From an uncultured SAR86 cluster bacterium (GTDB lineage Bacteria > Pseudomonadota > Gammaproteobacteria > Magnimaribacterales > AG-339-G14), in NCBI GenBank assembly GCA_902616715.1, contig CACMTR010000002.1, forward strand, positions 1 to 64,000: DNA of 64,000 nt. The letters are read 5' to 3'. The position numbers were made by a program, and so were the translations under genes. A model generated the notes under the pieces. That model worked only from the letters and a program-made list of their open reading frames with translations. It did no database searches and had not been told where the DNA came from. Positions 8,734-29,677 of this stretch are shown here, one piece after another; the first letter of the stretch is position 1, and every line of letters begins with the position of its first letter.

Positions 8734-8814
8734 TTGATTGAGCTATTCTAGCAAATTCTTTTTATATTCTTATAAGGCGATTTCTAAAAATTTTAAAGTA
8801 ATATTCTTGCGCTT

Positions 8815-10239
8815 ATGGATGTAATAATTTTGCAAAGAGATCTAAGGCTATTGGATAACCCCGCCTTGTTTTATGGCTCTAAAAAAGGAAATTATTGTGT
8901 CATTTACGTTTACGATGAAAATTATTGGCAGTCCTATGGAAGATCGCCAAGACAGTTGAAATTTGCTGTTGATTGCATGAAGGAGCTTAACGAAAATTTA
9001 AAAAAATTAGATTCTGAGATTTTAATTTTCAAGGGCTCATTTGAAAAATTAGGTATTTTTTTAAGAAAAGAATTTCCGAGTTCAAAAATTCATCTCAACC
9101 ACTGCACCGATAACCTTTATCACCGCAAAGAAATAAAAAAATTTTTAAATAAGTTCGAAAACACCTCACTTAATATTTATGACAATTTTGGCCTCCAACT
9201 TCAAAAATTCAACAGAGACAATTGGTCGAGAGACTGGAATGAAATAATGAGCAGGCCTTTATTAGGCTCTCCAAGTAATTCAATATTTAACAAGAAATTA
9301 CCTTTATTAAGTTTCGAAGATTTTGAACAAAATTTAAATATTGATAATTCTGCTCTTGGCGGAATTCAAAAAGGTGGAGAAAAATTAGCTTCTGAATTAC
9401 TTAACTCTTTTTTTGAATATCGTGCGGATGGCTATAGTAAAAAAATGTCTTGCCCAAGAGAGGCAGAAACCTCTTGCTCAAGACTATCTCCACACATTGC
9501 TTTTGGTTCAATTTCGATAAGAAAAATCTATCAAGAGTTAAATAATGTTTTATTTTTATCGCCTTATAAGAAGGATCTTTACTCTTTCAAGAAAAGACTG
9601 CATTGGCATTGTCACTTTGTTCAAAAACTTGAAACGGAACCAGAACTTGAATTTAGATCTATGCATCCGTTTTGTGATGAACTGAGAACAAAAGAAGATT
9701 CTGAACTGATAGAAAGATGGATAAAGGGTCAAACTGGATTCCCATTTTTAGATGCTTGTATCTCATATTTAAATTCTAATGGGTGGATAAATTTTAGGAT
9801 GAGAGCAATGATCATGTCCTTTGCCAGTTATAATCTTTGGCAGCCATGGCAAAAAACTTCACCTTTGTTAGCGGAACTTTTTACTGACTTTGAACCTGGA
9901 ATTCATATCAGCCAGGTTCAAATGCAAAGTGGAGTTACTGGAATAAACCTGCCCAGAATTTATTCAGTTTTCAAACAAAGCTTAGATCAGGATCCAACTG
10001 CCGAGTGGACTAAAAAAATAATTCCTCAACTTGAAAATGTCGAAACTAATTTGATACATAATGCGGAATTAAGAGATCTCTACTTTGAACAAATTGTGGA
10101 TCCGAAACTTTCAGCAAAAAAAGCTAGAGATACGATTTGGGCGATGAGGAAAAACAAAGATTTTAAAAAAATTGCTCGAGAAGTCTACCTCAAGCACGGA
10201 AGCAGAAGGAGGCAGCAATTTAACCGCGCTTCTAATTAA
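8815..10239 (+). CDS. Cryptochrome/photolyase-family flavoprotein (divergent)
   Basis: A 474-residue protein with the two photolyase domains: an N-terminal Rossmann domain (LQRDLRLLDNPAL) and a C-terminal FAD-binding helical domain containing SRLSPHIAFGSIS, WIKGQTGFPFLDACI and NGWINFRMRAM. It departs from classical CPD photolyases: the usual ELxWRdF becomes KRLHWHCHFVQKLE, and the flavin-proximal NxGGWQW region becomes HISQVQMQSG. It therefore belongs to a divergent branch whose activity (repair or light sensing) is uncertain. I do not see the four-cysteine cluster of FeS-type bacterial photolyases. It is a single gene facing the DUF2237 gene. Confidence 0.8.
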   Translation: MDVIILQRDLRLLDNPALFYGSKKGNYCVIYVYDENYWQSYGRSPRQLKFAVDCMKELNENLKKLDSEILIFKGSFEKLGIFLRKEFPSSKIHLNHCTDNLYHRKEIKKFLNKFENTSLNIYDNFGLQLQKFNRDNWSRDWNEIMSRPLLGSPSNSIFNKKLPLLSFEDFEQNLNIDNSALGGIQKGGEKLASELLNSFFEYRADGYSKKMSCPREAETSCSRLSPHIAFGSISIRKIYQELNNVLFLSPYKKDLYSFKKRLHWHCHFVQKLETEPELEFRSMHPFCDELRTKEDSELIERWIKGQTGFPFLDACISYLNSNGWINFRMRAMIMSFASYNLWQPWQKTSPLLAELFTDFEPGIHISQVQMQSGVTGINLPRIYSVFKQSLDQDPTAEWTKKIIPQLENVETNLIHNAELRDLYFEQIVDPKLSAKKARDTIWAMRKNKDFKKIAREVYLKHGSRRRQQFNRASN

Positions 10240-25790: not shown

Positions 25791-25808
25791 TTACTCCACT
25801 GTCACTGA
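25791..25808 (-). repeat. Sequence matching the glmS 3' end (possible attachment-site half)
   Basis: Read on the minus strand this is TCAGTGACAGTGGAGTAA, encoding S-V-T-V-E-stop. The true glmS end at 27851-27868 is TCAGTCACGGTGGAGTAG, also S-V-T-V-E-stop. Fifteen of 18 bases match and all three differences are synonymous. It directly adjoins the 97-bp repeat that starts at 25811. Integration at the 3' end of glmS with displacement of the original end would produce this; a partly coincidental ribosome site (GGAG) is the alternative. Confidence 0.5.
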
Positions 25809-25810
25809 TT

Positions 25811-25907
25811 AAGTATAAACAGTGATTTGATTTTTTACTCACTATCTGTGAATTTTTTTTAATTTAAATTAACTCTGTACCTATAAAATTCAATATTATT
25901 TGTAACG
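25811..25907 (-). pseudogene. Decayed 3' end of a second NucS-like nuclease gene; direct repeat copy A
   Basis: These 97 bases align without gaps to 26863-26959 with 10 mismatches (about 90 percent). The aligned region includes the nuclease stop codon. Translated on the minus strand the copy gives V-T-N-N-I-E-F-Y-R-Y-R-V-N-L-N followed by an in-frame TAA, then K-K-F-T-D-S-E-stop; the intact gene ends VTNNIEFYRYRINFNLKKV-TDNE. Homology ends upstream at about 25907, so only about the last 24 codons remain. Many differences are synonymous or conservative, suggesting divergence from a once-functional paralogue and not a fresh duplication. Confidence 0.75.
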
Positions 25908-25978
25908 TCCATATCCATAAGGTGCAAATCTCACATTAATTCTTATAAAATGATTTGCATCAATATAGAGATATAACT

Positions 25979-26821
25979 ATGGAAGAAATAAATTTAAAAC
26001 AGAAAGAATTCTGGTCTGGTTCAGGTGGTGATGTTTGGGTATCCAAACAAAGTGAGATGGATATTATGCTTAATCCATTGGGAACTAAAGCAATAAGTAA
26101 ACTAGATTTAAATAAAGCAACAAAAATAATAGATATTGGTTGTGGGTGTGGCGCAACTACTCTAGATATTGCAAAACAATTAGAAGAAGGAGAGATCATA
26201 GGGGTAGATATATCCGAGCCTATGCTAGCTAGGGCAGCTAAAAATGCTTCCGATCAATCTTTATCTAATGCTAATTTTCAAGTTTTAGATGTACAAGTTG
26301 ATGATATGCCATCAGATTTTGATATTGCCTTTTCTAGATTTGGCGTTATGTTTTTTGAAGATCCATACCAAGCATTTTCAAACATATACAAATCTTTGAA
26401 AGATAATGGTCAACTCAGTTTTGTATGTTGGCAAAATCCATCTTTAAATCCTTGGCAGAGTTTATCCTTACAAGTTATAAAAGAGTACCTCGATCTTCCA
26501 TCTCCTCCTCCAAAGAGTCCTGGACCCTTTGCGTTTGAAGATAAAAATTATATTTCAGATATTCTCAATCAATCTAATTTTAAAGATATAGAGATAGAAG
26601 ATAATCAAGAAGACATTGTTATGTTTTCAGGAAAATCTATTGAAGAAGCTTGTGAGGACTACTTAACTATTAATCCTGTAGTGACTGAAATGCTTAAAAA
26701 TTCAAAAGAAGAACTGAAAGGTGAGATTCTTCAAGCATTAATTCTTAAGTTTTCAGAGTTCCATAATGGTGATGGACTGTTGTTTCCAAGTGCAACCTGG
26801 ATAGTTACAGCAAGAAAATAG
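25979..26821 (+). CDS. Class I SAM-dependent methyltransferase
   Basis: A 280-residue methyltransferase with motif I IIDIGCGCGATTLDIA (near residue 43), the acidic end of strand 2 in IIGVDIS, VLDVQVDD at motif III and FDIAFSRFGVMFFEDP at motif IV. It resembles UbiE/small-molecule methyltransferases and not DNA methylases; no DPPY-type motif is present. The frame can be opened at a TTG (25955), but the ATG at 25979 follows AGAG at suitable spacing. It is the only plus-strand gene between 25.6 and 45.6 kb and is bracketed by the two nuclease 3'-end repeats, so it may have been inserted with them. Confidence 0.85.
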   Translation: MEEINLKQKEFWSGSGGDVWVSKQSEMDIMLNPLGTKAISKLDLNKATKIIDIGCGCGATTLDIAKQLEEGEIIGVDISEPMLARAAKNASDQSLSNANFQVLDVQVDDMPSDFDIAFSRFGVMFFEDPYQAFSNIYKSLKDNGQLSFVCWQNPSLNPWQSLSLQVIKEYLDLPSPPPKSPGPFAFEDKNYISDILNQSNFKDIEIEDNQEDIVMFSGKSIEEACEDYLTINPVVTEMLKNSKEELKGEILQALILKFSEFHNGDGLLFPSATWIVTARK

Positions 26822-26862
26822 CAATAGTTTGTTTTTTACATAAAAGAATTTATGTTTGCATT

Positions 26863-26959
26863 AAGTTTGAACAGTGATTTGATTTCTTACTCATTATCTG
26901 TGACTTTTTTTAAATTAAAATTAATTCTGTATCTATAAAATTCAATATTATTCGTAACG
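26863..26959. repeat. Direct repeat copy B (3' end of intact nuclease gene)
   Basis: This is the partner of 25811-25907, about 90 percent identical over 97 bp and in the same orientation. It covers the last 24 codons and stop of the nuclease gene at 26887-27828 plus 24 bases beyond. The two copies enclose the methyltransferase gene. Confidence 0.85.
26867..26880 (+). repeat. Inverted repeat, right end of the nuclease unit
   Basis: TTGAACAGTGATTT is the exact reverse complement of 27835-27848. It ends six bases from the stop codon of the nuclease gene. The related AACAGTGATTT at 25818-25828 belongs to the decayed copy. Confidence 0.8.
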
Positions 26960-27828
26960 CTTAATGCTCTTCTTATTCTTTGATCGTCTTCAAATGCGAT
27001 GATTATGCCTTTAACCTCTTGATCGTCTTCAGCAATTTCATCTTTTATGTAACCCATATATCTCTGGATCTGTCCTATAACCCTATCACTCGCTCTTCCT
27101 TTTTTTAACTCAATTACTAAAAGTTCTTTTCTGTCTTTGCTGATTGCAAGAATATCTATGGGACCTGTATCTGTTTGGTACTGTCGTCCTGTAAACTCAT
27201 CGTCTTCAAAAATATCATATTCTTCTGAAAGGTCAGTTTGTATCCAGTTTTTAACTAAGAAGTCCTCTAAGTGTTCTTCTAAAACAAACTCACTTGGATT
27301 TTCTATGTCGCTATCATTGCTTACTACTGGACTTGATTCACTATCGCCCATTAGTTTTTTGATCTCTTCAGAGTATTGAGTAAGGTTACATATTGTTGAA
27401 ATTGAACCAGACGAGTTTTTTAGGGGATCGCTCATATCCTCCCTTTTAATTGTTTTATTCAACCAATTCACACTTCTTCTATGTCTTAAGAAATGTTCAG
27501 CATCACCCTCGACATAAAAATAGTCACTGCAAATTTCACCAAGGTGATAATTACCTTGTCCGTCTGGCGACAATATAATATCGTCCTGCTCGAGAAACTT
27601 TGCCAAAGTGTGAATTGCTCCACAAGCAAGACCCGCTTTAATTTTGGATGCGCCCGGATGTCTTTCTAAATACTCAGGTATATATTTTTTATTAAATTTT
27701 CTCCAATTATCAGGAAGATCATTTGAGAAATCTATATCCATGCTGAAGTCGACACCGATATAACCGCTTTCAAAGCAGTCACTGAAAAACATATGTTGCT
27801 TACCTAAAACTACTCTCAGATAATTCAT
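26887..27828 (-). CDS. NucS/Mrr-like PD-(D/E)XK endonuclease with N-terminal sensor-like domain
   Basis: A 313-residue protein. The C-terminal part (about 185-305) is a PD-(D/E)XK nuclease of the NucS type: Asp225 in GPIDIL, Glu240-x-Lys242 in VIELKKG, and Q-x-x-RY at 253-257. The N-terminal 140 residues (LGKQHMFFSDCFESGYIGVDF, IILSPDGQGNYHLGEI, HRRSVNWL) form a separate domain found in predicted restriction proteins; I suspect a PUA/EVE-like base-reading fold, but that is inference. A stand-alone modification-dependent restriction or anti-phage role is likely. It is framed on both sides, six bases from ATG and from stop, by a perfect 14-bp inverted repeat. AAGAG precedes the ATG. Confidence 0.8.
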   Translation of the reverse strand: MNYLRVVLGKQHMFFSDCFESGYIGVDFSMDIDFSNDLPDNWRKFNKKYIPEYLERHPGASKIKAGLACGAIHTLAKFLEQDDIILSPDGQGNYHLGEICSDYFYVEGDAEHFLRHRRSVNWLNKTIKREDMSDPLKNSSGSISTICNLTQYSEEIKKLMGDSESSPVVSNDSDIENPSEFVLEEHLEDFLVKNWIQTDLSEEYDIFEDDEFTGRQYQTDTGPIDILAISKDRKELLVIELKKGRASDRVIGQIQRYMGYIKDEIAEDDQEVKGIIIAFEDDQRIRRALSVTNNIEFYRYRINFNLKKVTDNE

Positions 27829-27834
27829 ACTCTT

Positions 27835-27848
27835 AAATCACTGTTCAA
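27835..27848 (-). repeat. Inverted repeat, left end of the nuclease unit
   Basis: AAATCACTGTTCAA on the plus strand, exact reverse complement of 26867-26880. It lies six bases upstream of the nuclease ATG and two bases after the glmS stop codon, filling the whole gap between the genes. It could be an element end or an operator for the nuclease gene. Confidence 0.8.
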
Positions 27849-27850
27849 AA

Positions 27851-29677
27851 CTACTCCACCGTGACTGACTTGGCTAAATTCCTGGGCTGATCAATATCAG
27901 TGCCTCTCAGTAGAGCGACTTCGTAAGATAAAATCTGTAAGGGAATTGAATACAAAATTGGTGTGAGCAAGAAATCACATTCGGGCATACTAATGTATCT
28001 TCCCGTTGATAAGTCTAATTTCTCCTTAGCGTTTCCAAACACATATAAAGCTCCGCCTCTGGCTTTAACCTCTTCTAAATTTGAAACAAGTTTTTCTGCC
28101 AATTCGTATTCTGGGGCAATTGCAACCACTGGCATATCTTCATCTATTAAAGCTAAAGGTCCGTGCTTTAGTTCACCAGCCGGATAAGCTTCGGCATGAA
28201 TATAAGATATTTCTTTTAATTTTAAAGCGCCCTCTTTGGCAATTGGATAGAAAATTCCTCTTCCTAAAAATAAAGCATTATCTTTATTAGCAATCTCTGG
28301 AGCAAAATCGATGATGTCATTTTTTAGCTTTAAGGCTTCAGAAATCTTTTCTGGTAAGAGCCTTAAAGCTTTAATCATTCGAGCTCTTAGACGAGGATTT
28401 TTCCCTGCTGCTTTTGCTAAAGATAAAGTTAAAAGCATTAAAGCTGTAAGCTGAGTGGTAAAGGCCTTGGTAGAGGCAACGCCAATTTCTGGCCCAGCGT
28501 TGGTTAGCAATAAAAAATCAGATTCACGAGCTAAAGAGCTGGTTGGAACGTTGCAAATAGAAAGTGACGCTAAGTAACCTTTGTCTCCAGCGTACCTCAA
28601 TGCAGCGAGTGTATCTGCTGTTTCACCAGACTGAGAAATAGTCACCAAAAGAGTGTCCTTATCAACATATGGATTTTTATAACGATACTCGCTTGCATAA
28701 TCGAGTTGAGTCGGAAGGCCAGAAATTGCCGAAAACCAATTTGCTGCGACTCTTCCGGCATGAAGACTGGTGCCACAAGCGATTATTTGAATTCTTTTGA
28801 CTTTGGCAAACATCTCCGATGAACCTTGTCCAAAAATATTTTCCAAAACATCTTCACCACCGATTCTTCCATCCAAAGTATTAAGAACAGCTTGAGGTTG
28901 CTCATAAATTTCTTTTTCCATGTAATGTTTAAAGTTTCCTTTAGAAGTTGCCTCTGCGTTAATATCAATTGTTAACTTTTCTCTATTTGCCAATTGATCC
29001 TTGGCATCGTAAATTTCAACCAAATCAGGTGAAATTTTTGCAACGTCTCCATCTTCCAAAATCAAGAAATTACTAGTCAAATCGCCAAGGGCAAGAGGGT
29101 CAGACGCGGCAAAATTTTCTTTTTTGCCAAGGCCAATCACTAGAGGTGAACGATTTCTTGCAACCACAAAACTTTCAGGTTCTCGCTGATCAAGCGCCGC
29201 AATTGCGTAAGCTCCATCAAGCTTGTTTTTAAGTTTTTGCATTGCGGACAATAAAGAATCTTCAGCTTTTAAAAAATTATCCAATAGATGGGCAATCAGT
29301 TCTGAATCAGTCTTAGAATTGAAGGCATATCCCTCGTCTGTAAGTTCTTCCTTTAAGGACAAATAATTTTCTATGATGCCGTTATGGACTATGAAAACTC
29401 GATCATTCGATTGATGAGGATGAGCATTTATTTCTGACGGCTCCCCATGAGTTGCCCATCTAGTATGCGCAATACCTACCTTGCCTTTAGGCTTATCCGC
29501 TATCATCTTTTCTTCTAAATTTTTTACTTTCCCTAACGTCCGAAGGTGCGCAACATTATTTTCAGAATGCATAGCGATGCCTGCTGAGTCGTAACCTCGG
29601 TATTCCATTTTAAAAAGCCCTCTAATTAAAAGCTTGCCAACACTTCTATCGGTTGCTGCTGCAATGATCCCGCACAT
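27851..29677 (-). CDS. glmS: Glutamine--fructose-6-phosphate aminotransferase (isomerizing)
   Basis: A full-length 608-residue GlmS that makes glucosamine-6-phosphate from fructose-6-phosphate and glutamine, the first step to UDP-GlcNAc. The N-terminal nucleophile cysteine follows the start Met (MCGIIA), and the glutaminase domain has EYRGYDSAG and TRWATHGEP. Two SIS sugar-isomerase domains follow (ACGTSLHAG, ISQSGETADT, STKAFTTQ). It ends AKSVTVE as usual. The start overlaps the glmU stop by one base, so the two are an operon. No glmS ribozyme is seen. A copy of its final codons is at 25791-25808. Confidence 0.97.
   Translation of the reverse strand: MCGIIAAATDRSVGKLLIRGLFKMEYRGYDSAGIAMHSENNVAHLRTLGKVKNLEEKMIADKPKGKVGIAHTRWATHGEPSEINAHPHQSNDRVFIVHNGIIENYLSLKEELTDEGYAFNSKTDSELIAHLLDNFLKAEDSLLSAMQKLKNKLDGAYAIAALDQREPESFVVARNRSPLVIGLGKKENFAASDPLALGDLTSNFLILEDGDVAKISPDLVEIYDAKDQLANREKLTIDINAEATSKGNFKHYMEKEIYEQPQAVLNTLDGRIGGEDVLENIFGQGSSEMFAKVKRIQIIACGTSLHAGRVAANWFSAISGLPTQLDYASEYRYKNPYVDKDTLLVTISQSGETADTLAALRYAGDKGYLASLSICNVPTSSLARESDFLLLTNAGPEIGVASTKAFTTQLTALMLLTLSLAKAAGKNPRLRARMIKALRLLPEKISEALKLKNDIIDFAPEIANKDNALFLGRGIFYPIAKEGALKLKEISYIHAEAYPAGELKHGPLALIDEDMPVVAIAPEYELAEKLVSNLEEVKARGGALYVFGNAKEKLDLSTGRYISMPECDFLLTPILYSIPLQILSYEVALLRGTDIDQPRNLAKSVTVE

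What the first reader, a model, noticed from the sequence alone, without database searches (positions are those of the whole stretch)
26867..27848. Single-gene nuclease unit bounded by a perfect 14-bp inverted repeat, directly after glmS
TTGAACAGTGATTT (26867-26880) and its exact reverse complement (27835-27848) frame a NucS/Mrr-like endonuclease gene, each six bases from its stop or start codon. No transposase or integrase is present. The unit starts two bases after the glmS stop. It could be a minimal non-autonomous element mobilised by a nuclease, a defence cassette exchanged at a glmS hotspot, or a gene with symmetrical self-regulatory sites. I know of no described element with this layout.
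Basis: partly seen in the sequence, partly recalled or inferred. Interest (0 to 1): 0.78.

Follow-up and report, generated by a model that had tools for sequence, protein, structure and literature searches.

The report
Defence-gene cassette at glmS, integrase-borne
The nuclease gene is one of many tiny gene cassettes that a family of serine integrases appears to have inserted, often in rows, into the end of the glmS gene of ocean bacteria, and its inverted repeat is part of the integrase's attachment site.

Summary
Comparison makes it real. In 89 of 116 SAR86-order glmS loci, copies of the 18-bp glmS 3' end (SVTVE*) lie downstream of glmS: 206 copies against 1 on the other strand. In 111 of 206 intervals they bound cassettes with matching 16-bp inverted arms, the right arm exactly 4 bp before the next glmS end. 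The window's repeat is such an arm pair; its displaced glmS end is at 25791-25808, beyond a methyltransferase gene and a nuclease remnant. G006 shows the site without the insert. Wobble-base identity switches at one dinucleotide (AC), the centre of the 54-bp dyad, as expected of large serine integrases. Elements with such an integrase beside this site exist in one SAR86 genome and two viral contigs. Cassettes up to 99.6% identical occur in different families, so they move. The nuclease is PADLOC candidate PDC-S02 cargo, not the mobiliser. It works like SCC/ECC, at another gene. The integrase for the window's arms is unknown; nothing was bench-tested.

The parts
27851..29677 (-). glmS, host target gene
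   Evidence: ORF and Pfam SIS/GATase
27851..27868 (-). attL core TCAGTCACGGTGGAGTAG (SVTVE*); inferred strand-exchange dinucleotide AC at 27861-27862
   Evidence: core pattern and exchange mapping
27835..27850 (-). left terminal repeat TTTTGAACAGTGATTT (P' arm); the finding's right 14-bp arm is its inner part
   Evidence: the same type (>=13/16) directly follows a glmS end at 63 junctions in 45 of 116 loci
26887..27828 (-). cargo: NucS_C-type PD-(D/E)XK nuclease, PADLOC candidate PDC-S02
   Evidence: Pfam NucS_C 5.7e-12; PDC-S02 1.3e-140; Foldseek 2vld 3.9e-7, on a model that is confident only in the C-terminal part
26865..26880 (-). right terminal repeat AAATCACTGTTCAAAC of the nuclease copy, followed by TTAA (26861-26864); no core follows here
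25955..26821 (+). class I SAM-dependent methyltransferase gene inside the inserted segment; origin unexplained
   Evidence: Pfam; no relative by tblastn in the loci fetched by then
25808..25907 (-). remnant: 3' end of a second nuclease copy plus its terminal repeat, 90/100 identical to 26860-26959
25813..25828 (-). right terminal repeat AAATCACTGTTTATAC of the remnant (13/16 to the left repeat), then TTAA 25809-25812
25791..25808 (-). attR: displaced glmS 3' end TCAGTGACAGTGGAGTAA; AC at 25801-25802
   Evidence: empty site in G006/L040

Best explanation
The unit is cargo of a non-autonomous integrative cassette that entered the glmS 3' end by large-serine-integrase recombination. The inverted repeats are the two arms of the integrase's attP. 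In a circular cassette they would flank a 22-bp centre (4 bp plus the 18-bp glmS end) whose middle AC is where strands are exchanged with the matching stretch of glmS. Integration gives glmS a replacement last 12 nt from the cassette and pushes the old end to the far side of the insert. Because each insertion rebuilds the target next to glmS, cassettes can pile up in rows. The integrase is supplied in trans by autonomous elements that carry it beside the same kind of attP. The cargo, here a PDC-S02 nuclease, probably defends the host against phage. Shown from sequence: anatomy, exchange point, displaced glmS ends, empty site, horizontal spread, integrases next to the same att site. Inferred: action in trans, a circular intermediate of LSR-less cassettes, defence function.
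For: 206 displaced glmS ends downstream of glmS against 1 on the opposite strand in 1.205 Mb from 116 loci; 89 of 116 loci have at least one. In 111 of 206 core-to-core intervals the 16-bp arms match at >=11/16 with a gap of exactly 4 bp; each other gap from 0 to 10 gives at most 3, and re-pairing arms between cassettes gives 11.7%. Exchange point: in 130 left-junction pairs, wobble identity is .38 and .28 before AC and .62 and .60 after it; in 132 right-junction pairs (94 junctions) it is .87 and .80 before and .26 and .39 after. Integrase next to the site: viral contigs L146 and L147 (L147 with a 99-bp terminal repeat, so probably circular) and SAR86 genome G142, where a 6,047-bp element in glmS carries it. 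LSR-less cassettes carry the same arms as the G142 and G081 integrase elements, 14-16 of 16. Of 34 full-length homologous cassette pairs in different genomes, 15 span families; 13 of these are 96-99.6% identical and 2 about 86%. 24 of 54 integrase loci with enough downstream DNA end at a displaced glmS end.
Against: No integrase was found for the window's own repeat type, none in its genome (PF00239), and a relative of L147's integrase in only 2 of 203 order genomes, one of them a fragment; one query can miss divergent enzymes. I made no search for circular LSR-less cassettes. 95 of 206 intervals fail the arm test; some contain cores missed by the strict pattern, as in L055. AC is a fixed position of the search pattern, so its constancy is not itself evidence; the wobble switch is. 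The junction pairs are not independent. In the window the intact nuclease's right repeat is not followed by a core; a methyltransferase and a nuclease remnant intervene. Sharing of cassettes could partly reflect homologous recombination after the first insertion.
Confidence: 0.85

Rival explanations
1. The cassettes spread by homologous recombination between glmS flanks of different strains; no recombinase acts on the repeats today.
For: Integrase relatives are rare in the sampled order (2 of 203 genomes), and the loci share glmS.
Against: The identity switch falls between wobble bases 3 nt apart on both sides. Arms stay paired at a fixed 4-bp gap in 111 of 206 intervals. Single cassettes of about 230-1800 bp occur in different families, and junction pairs of one cassette with different neighbours are common.
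Confidence: 0.08
2. A tyrosine-recombinase system (integron or Xer-dependent element).
For: Arrays of small cassettes look integron-like; two phage-integrase-family genes, likely XerC and XerD, are in the genome.
Against: The site-adjacent enzymes in L146, L147 and G142 are serine integrases; L146 and L147 match Resolvase, Recombinase and, below its cut-off, Zn-ribbon, and exchange is confined to a central stretch of about 2 bp. No further tyrosine recombinase was detected in the window's genome.
Confidence: 0.03
3. The inverted repeat is coincidence or an operator pair controlling the nuclease.
For: A 14-bp pair in this window is not rare by itself.
Against: The same repeat type (>=13/16) directly follows a glmS end at 63 junctions in 45 of 116 loci, in front of various genes. 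Occurrences away from glmS ends were not counted there; in the window's genome the exact repeat occurs only at this cassette.
Confidence: 0.02
4. A Tn7-like or other DDE transposon remnant using the glmS target.
For: Tn7 targets glmS (recalled).
Against: Exchange lies inside the coding end and the glmS end itself is replaced and displaced; Tn7 inserts downstream with a 5-bp duplication (recalled). DDE transposases were not searched for genome-wide.
Confidence: 0.02

Closest known systems
Staphylococcal and enterococcal cassette chromosomes (SCC, ECC)
   Same: Large serine recombinase, insertion at the 3' end of a conserved gene, about 50-bp att direct repeats, inverted repeats giving dyad symmetry, variable cargo (PMC6222049, passages read). 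The best NCBIfam matches of G142's enzyme are CcrB (8.4e-23) and XisF (8.1e-22).
   Different: Target glmS, not rlmH; scores far below the Ccr cut-offs; one integrase beside the site in L147 and G142, not a CcrA/CcrB pair; 111 arm-supported cassettes with a median of 547 bp, only one of them with an integrase; many different arm types.
Integron gene cassettes
   Same: Rows of small cassettes behind a fixed host site.
   Different: Double-strand dyad att site with a central exchange point and serine integrases beside it; no IntI-like gene beyond the two likely Xer genes in the window's genome. Integron features are recalled; attC sites were not searched for.
PADLOC candidate PDC-S02 and NucS/EndoMS
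   Same: Full-length PDC-S02 match 1.3e-140; NucS-type nuclease domain in sequence and predicted fold.
   Different: The NucS equivalog model cut-off is not met (47.8 against 216 bits); the N-terminal part is not covered by the NucS models and is poorly modelled.

Membership tests
SCC/ECC cassette chromosome | Ccr-family large serine recombinase | tested here: not met
   NCBIfam CcrB 80.8 bits for G142 and 70.2 for L147 against cut-off 900
SCC/ECC cassette chromosome | Insertion at the 3' end of rlmH | tested here: not met
   Insertion is in glmS
SCC/ECC cassette chromosome | att direct repeats with dyad symmetry | tested here: met
   54-bp dyad and displaced cores
Element of glmS-targeting large serine integrases (non-autonomous member) | attP arms + 4 bp + glmS core as in integrase-bearing elements | tested here: met
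   window arms 13/16 across the whole insert, 15/16 for the intact nuclease copy, whose own right arm lacks a core
Element of glmS-targeting large serine integrases (non-autonomous member) | Recombination by such an integrase | not testable with these tools
   needs an in vitro or E. coli assay
Integron | IntI-type tyrosine integrase and attC sites | tested here: inconclusive
   PF00589 gives 2 matches in the window's genome, likely XerC/XerD; attC sites not searched
PDC-S02 defence candidate | Full-length profile match | tested here: met
   1.3e-140 over residues 2-308
PDC-S02 defence candidate | Anti-phage activity | not testable with these tools
   needs phage challenge of E. coli expressing the gene
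Tn7 | TnsABCD and 5-bp target duplication downstream of glmS | not tested
   features recalled; the insertion geometry differs

The most novel reading that the evidence does not exclude
SAR86 carries a serine-integrase counterpart of the integron: a communal glmS platform where LSR-less cassettes with many arm types are inserted by visiting integrases. The integrase itself is encoded across its own attP: an A7-A9 slip run near its stop would let a -1 frameshift read through attP into a start-less DNA-binding domain on the other side. Only the circular element could then make the extended enzyme, and integration would cut the domain off, a built-in switch of recombination direction or specificity.
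Probability: 0.4. Interest if true: 0.9.

Novelty: new variant of a known kind. Interest (0 to 1): 0.8.

Why it matters
SAR86 is a clade of gammaproteobacteria ubiquitous in surface oceans (PMC3569297, abstract); the genomes here are about 1-1.8 Mb. A single hotspot that takes up defence and accessory genes as cassettes of a few hundred bases, shared between families at up to 99.6% identity, would help explain how such small genomes keep changing their phage defences. It also gives a list of cassette genes to test, a set of serine integrases with a defined target in a widely conserved gene, and a concrete hypothesis for how some of them could sense whether they are integrated.

Tried and rejected
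Nuclease as mobiliser: rejected, because arms of the same type flank other genes. Of the nuclease relatives, those in G009 and G035 lie in or at the edge of glmS-core cassettes with other arms; for G046 and G041 no core was found in the 19-20 kb fetched and no window-type repeat beside the gene. Serine catalytic domain resident in the window's genome: not found; 5 of 61 relatives have one, 4 over the cut-off. Tyrosine recombinase: only two matches in the window's genome. Phage records for the small domain: no match at E 0.01 with one query in 50,697 records. The G044 and G047 large serine recombinases have no glmS core in the 12-14 kb fetched around them. Fold search of the small domain: no match with E <= 0.001, so its assignment rests on partial PF07508 matches; L146's copy had no Pfam match. 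The model of the nuclease is poor in its N-terminal half. In one search the L219 junction was wrongly joined, because the glmS-proximal cassette has other arms, so it is not counted.

Literature searches: SAR86+glmS+integrase and SAR86+serine recombinase gave 0 papers. Large serine recombinase+glmS gave 2, listing only, about genetic tools by title and abstract start. Further listings. Papers opened: PMC6222049, PMC12884075 and PMC3569297, passages only. The library lacks most subscription journals and all preprints, so absence from print is not established.

Full report
Observation. The 14-bp inverted repeat, its coordinates, the six-base spacing to the gene and the two-base distance from the glmS stop are all correct. 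The repeat has only these two exact copies in the assembly. Its mere existence is not significant: controls give about two such pairs per window, or about 0.55 when at least 4 G/C are required; the window has two distinct pairs.

What pointed further. A protein search of relatives found a second piece of the nuclease C-terminus at 25838-25912 in the same genome. Reading that region showed the repeat again and, beyond it, TTACTCCACTGTCACTGA, the reverse complement of a glmS 3' end encoding SVTVE-stop. So nuclease, methyltransferase and remnant all lie between the true glmS end and a displaced copy of it.

Relatives. glmS was found in 151 of 203 genomes of the window's order at the cut-off used, and I fetched downstream sequence from 117 of these 151, chosen by hand. 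One relative, G142, matches a named SAR86 record, AH-326-D05, so the window belongs to the SAR86 order. 116 loci were analysed, including the window; L202 was dropped as too short, and a few others have little downstream DNA and count as misses. On the glmS strand, 206 further copies of the 18-bp glmS end occur in 1,204,970 bp, against 1 on the other strand; 89 of 116 loci have at least one. In 111 of 206 core-to-core intervals the 16 bp after one core match, inverted, at >=11/16 the 16 bp that end exactly 4 bp before the next core. Gaps of 0-3 and 5-10 bp give at most 3 each. Pairing arms of different cassettes gives 11.7%, because some arm types are common. These 111 cassettes, in 63 loci, measure 186 to 6,047 bp core to core, median 547. 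The other 95 intervals fail the test; cores that the strict pattern misses account for some of them (for example L055).

Strand exchange. Where the same cassette sits in different neighbourhoods, the third codon positions of the core show where its own DNA begins. On the left side, identity is .38 and .28 at the two wobble bases before AC and .62 and .60 after it (130 pairs, not independent). On the right side it is .87 and .80 before and .26 and .39 after (132 pairs from 94 junctions). So the switch lies between the wobble bases on either side of AC. AC itself is fixed in the search pattern, so its constancy proves nothing, but it is also the geometric centre of the 54-bp dyad formed by right arm, 4 bp, core and left arm. 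A two-base exchange at the centre of a dyad of about 50 bp is the established behaviour of large serine integrases (recalled). G006, 1698 of 1815 nt identical to the window over glmS without its last 12 nt, has the empty site: its glmS end is followed by the sequence that in the window follows the displaced core. A recent integrase study also suggests tandem insertion through a rebuilt attB (PMC12884075, passages).

The enzyme. A search with a small domain found beside glmS led to two viral-collection contigs, L146 and L147. In each, a serine integrase of about 590 aa is followed by a complete arm-4 bp-glmS core-arm site, with arms matching 12/16 and 15/16. L147 has a 99-bp terminal repeat, so it is probably a 9.95-kb circle. 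In SAR86 genome G142 such an element (6,047 bp, arms 15/16, integrase at +4349 to +6001) is integrated in glmS and followed by LSR-less cassettes. G081 has an integrase end with another arm type. LSR-less cassettes in other genomes carry arms matching these two elements at 14-16 of 16. Among the 116 loci only G142's has an integrase by tblastn with eight queries. Two collection scans returned 64 integrase loci. I examined 59 of them, leaving out five partial ones (L263, L265, L267, L268, L278). 54 have at least 150 bp downstream, and 24 of these, including L146, L147 and G142, have a displaced glmS end within 900 bp, most at +28 to +135; at least one record is in both collections (L229 and L274, both misses). 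By eye, about eleven of the remaining 30 have slightly different glmS ends, and four or five point at glmS on the opposite strand. The taxa are mostly Proteobacteria by record title.

Movement. Of 34 full-length homologous cassette pairs in different genomes, 15 join different families of the order. 13 are 96-99.6% identical and two about 86%, although glmS proteins of the other families are only 46-75% identical to the window's. 111 cassettes fall into 88 groups, 73 of them singletons.

Cargo. The largest ORF of 101 cassettes plus the window nuclease was scanned; 9 of the 110 other cassettes had no ORF of 60 aa and were dropped, and one of the 101 is G142's integrase itself. Matches at E 1e-4 include HNH (3), MvaI/BcnI restriction enzyme (2), MrcB_N (2), NucS_C (2), a cytosine DNA methylase, SRA and type III restriction domains. 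There are also non-defence or unknown families: DUF805 (4), ASCH (3), MORN (3), DUF2306 (3), MAPEG and a desaturase (25 of 31 families shown). So defence genes are prominent, not exclusive. The window nuclease is a full-length PDC-S02 (1.3e-140). Relatives in G009 and G035 sit in or beside glmS-core cassettes with different arms, so cargo and arms are exchanged.

What does not fit. In the window the intact nuclease's right arm and TTAA are followed at once by other sequence, not by a core. The methyltransferase gene has no relative in the loci fetched. Tandem insertion of two nuclease cassettes followed by a deletion or an illegitimate insertion would account for it, but is not shown. No integrase with the window's arm type was found.

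A second discovery. In glmS-targeting integrases the -1 frame is open from before the integrase stop codon to the AC in 18 of 18 testable cases; the +1 frame is open in 5 of 18. Six of the 24 were set aside because the integrase frame itself runs through the core. A run of at least 7 A lies within 60 nt of the stop in 16 of 18, against 10 of 29 integrases without a strict glmS core, of which about eight have a degenerate glmS end by eye. In two native and four rejoined attP sites the same frame continues into a small ORF, some of which match the PF07508 DNA-binding domain and mostly have no Met upstream of the conserved part. Small ORFs of this kind remain next to glmS in several SAR86 genomes: 6 of the 10 PF07508 hits in 61 genomes lie beside glmS or in its array. 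I read this as a possible integrase extension made only by the circular form. Phylogenetic dependence among the 18 was not corrected for, frameshifting was not tested, and the fold search did not confirm the domain.

Verdict. A real non-autonomous cassette of a glmS-targeting serine-integrase system, probably of several different integrases. It works like SCC/ECC but fails two of their defining features, so it is a new variant of a known kind.

Noticed in passing
L147:6600-7077, L146:3500-3933, L217 and 15 further integrase loci: The -1 frame is open from the integrase end to the exchange point in 18 of 18 cases, with an A7-A9 run near the stop in 16 of 18; in two intact and four rejoined attP sites it continues into a mostly start-less small DNA-binding-like ORF.
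   Followed up: partly
window 25808-26860: Methyltransferase gene between an intact nuclease cassette and a 100-bp remnant of a second copy; no core at the 26861 junction.
   Followed up: partly
L225, L230, L227, L240, perhaps L220: Integrase relatives whose 3' end points directly at glmS on the opposite strand, so the element appears inserted the other way round (by eye).
   Followed up: no
L055 and L069 arrays: Pairs of long ORFs in these glmS arrays look like multi-gene restriction-modification systems by eye; they were not scanned one by one.
   Followed up: no
G102:C2, G117:C4, G147:C8, G053:C1, G170:C1: Contigs end within 1 kb downstream of glmS, in G102 right at its end, as expected if the site varies within the population.
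   Followed up: no
window 8767-9572: Another perfect inverted repeat (15 bp, beginning TTCTTATAAGGCGA), arms about 790 bp apart.
   Followed up: no
L147:7146-7745 and L146:881-1726: The integrase-bearing viral-collection contigs also carry a second serine recombinase gene.
   Followed up: no
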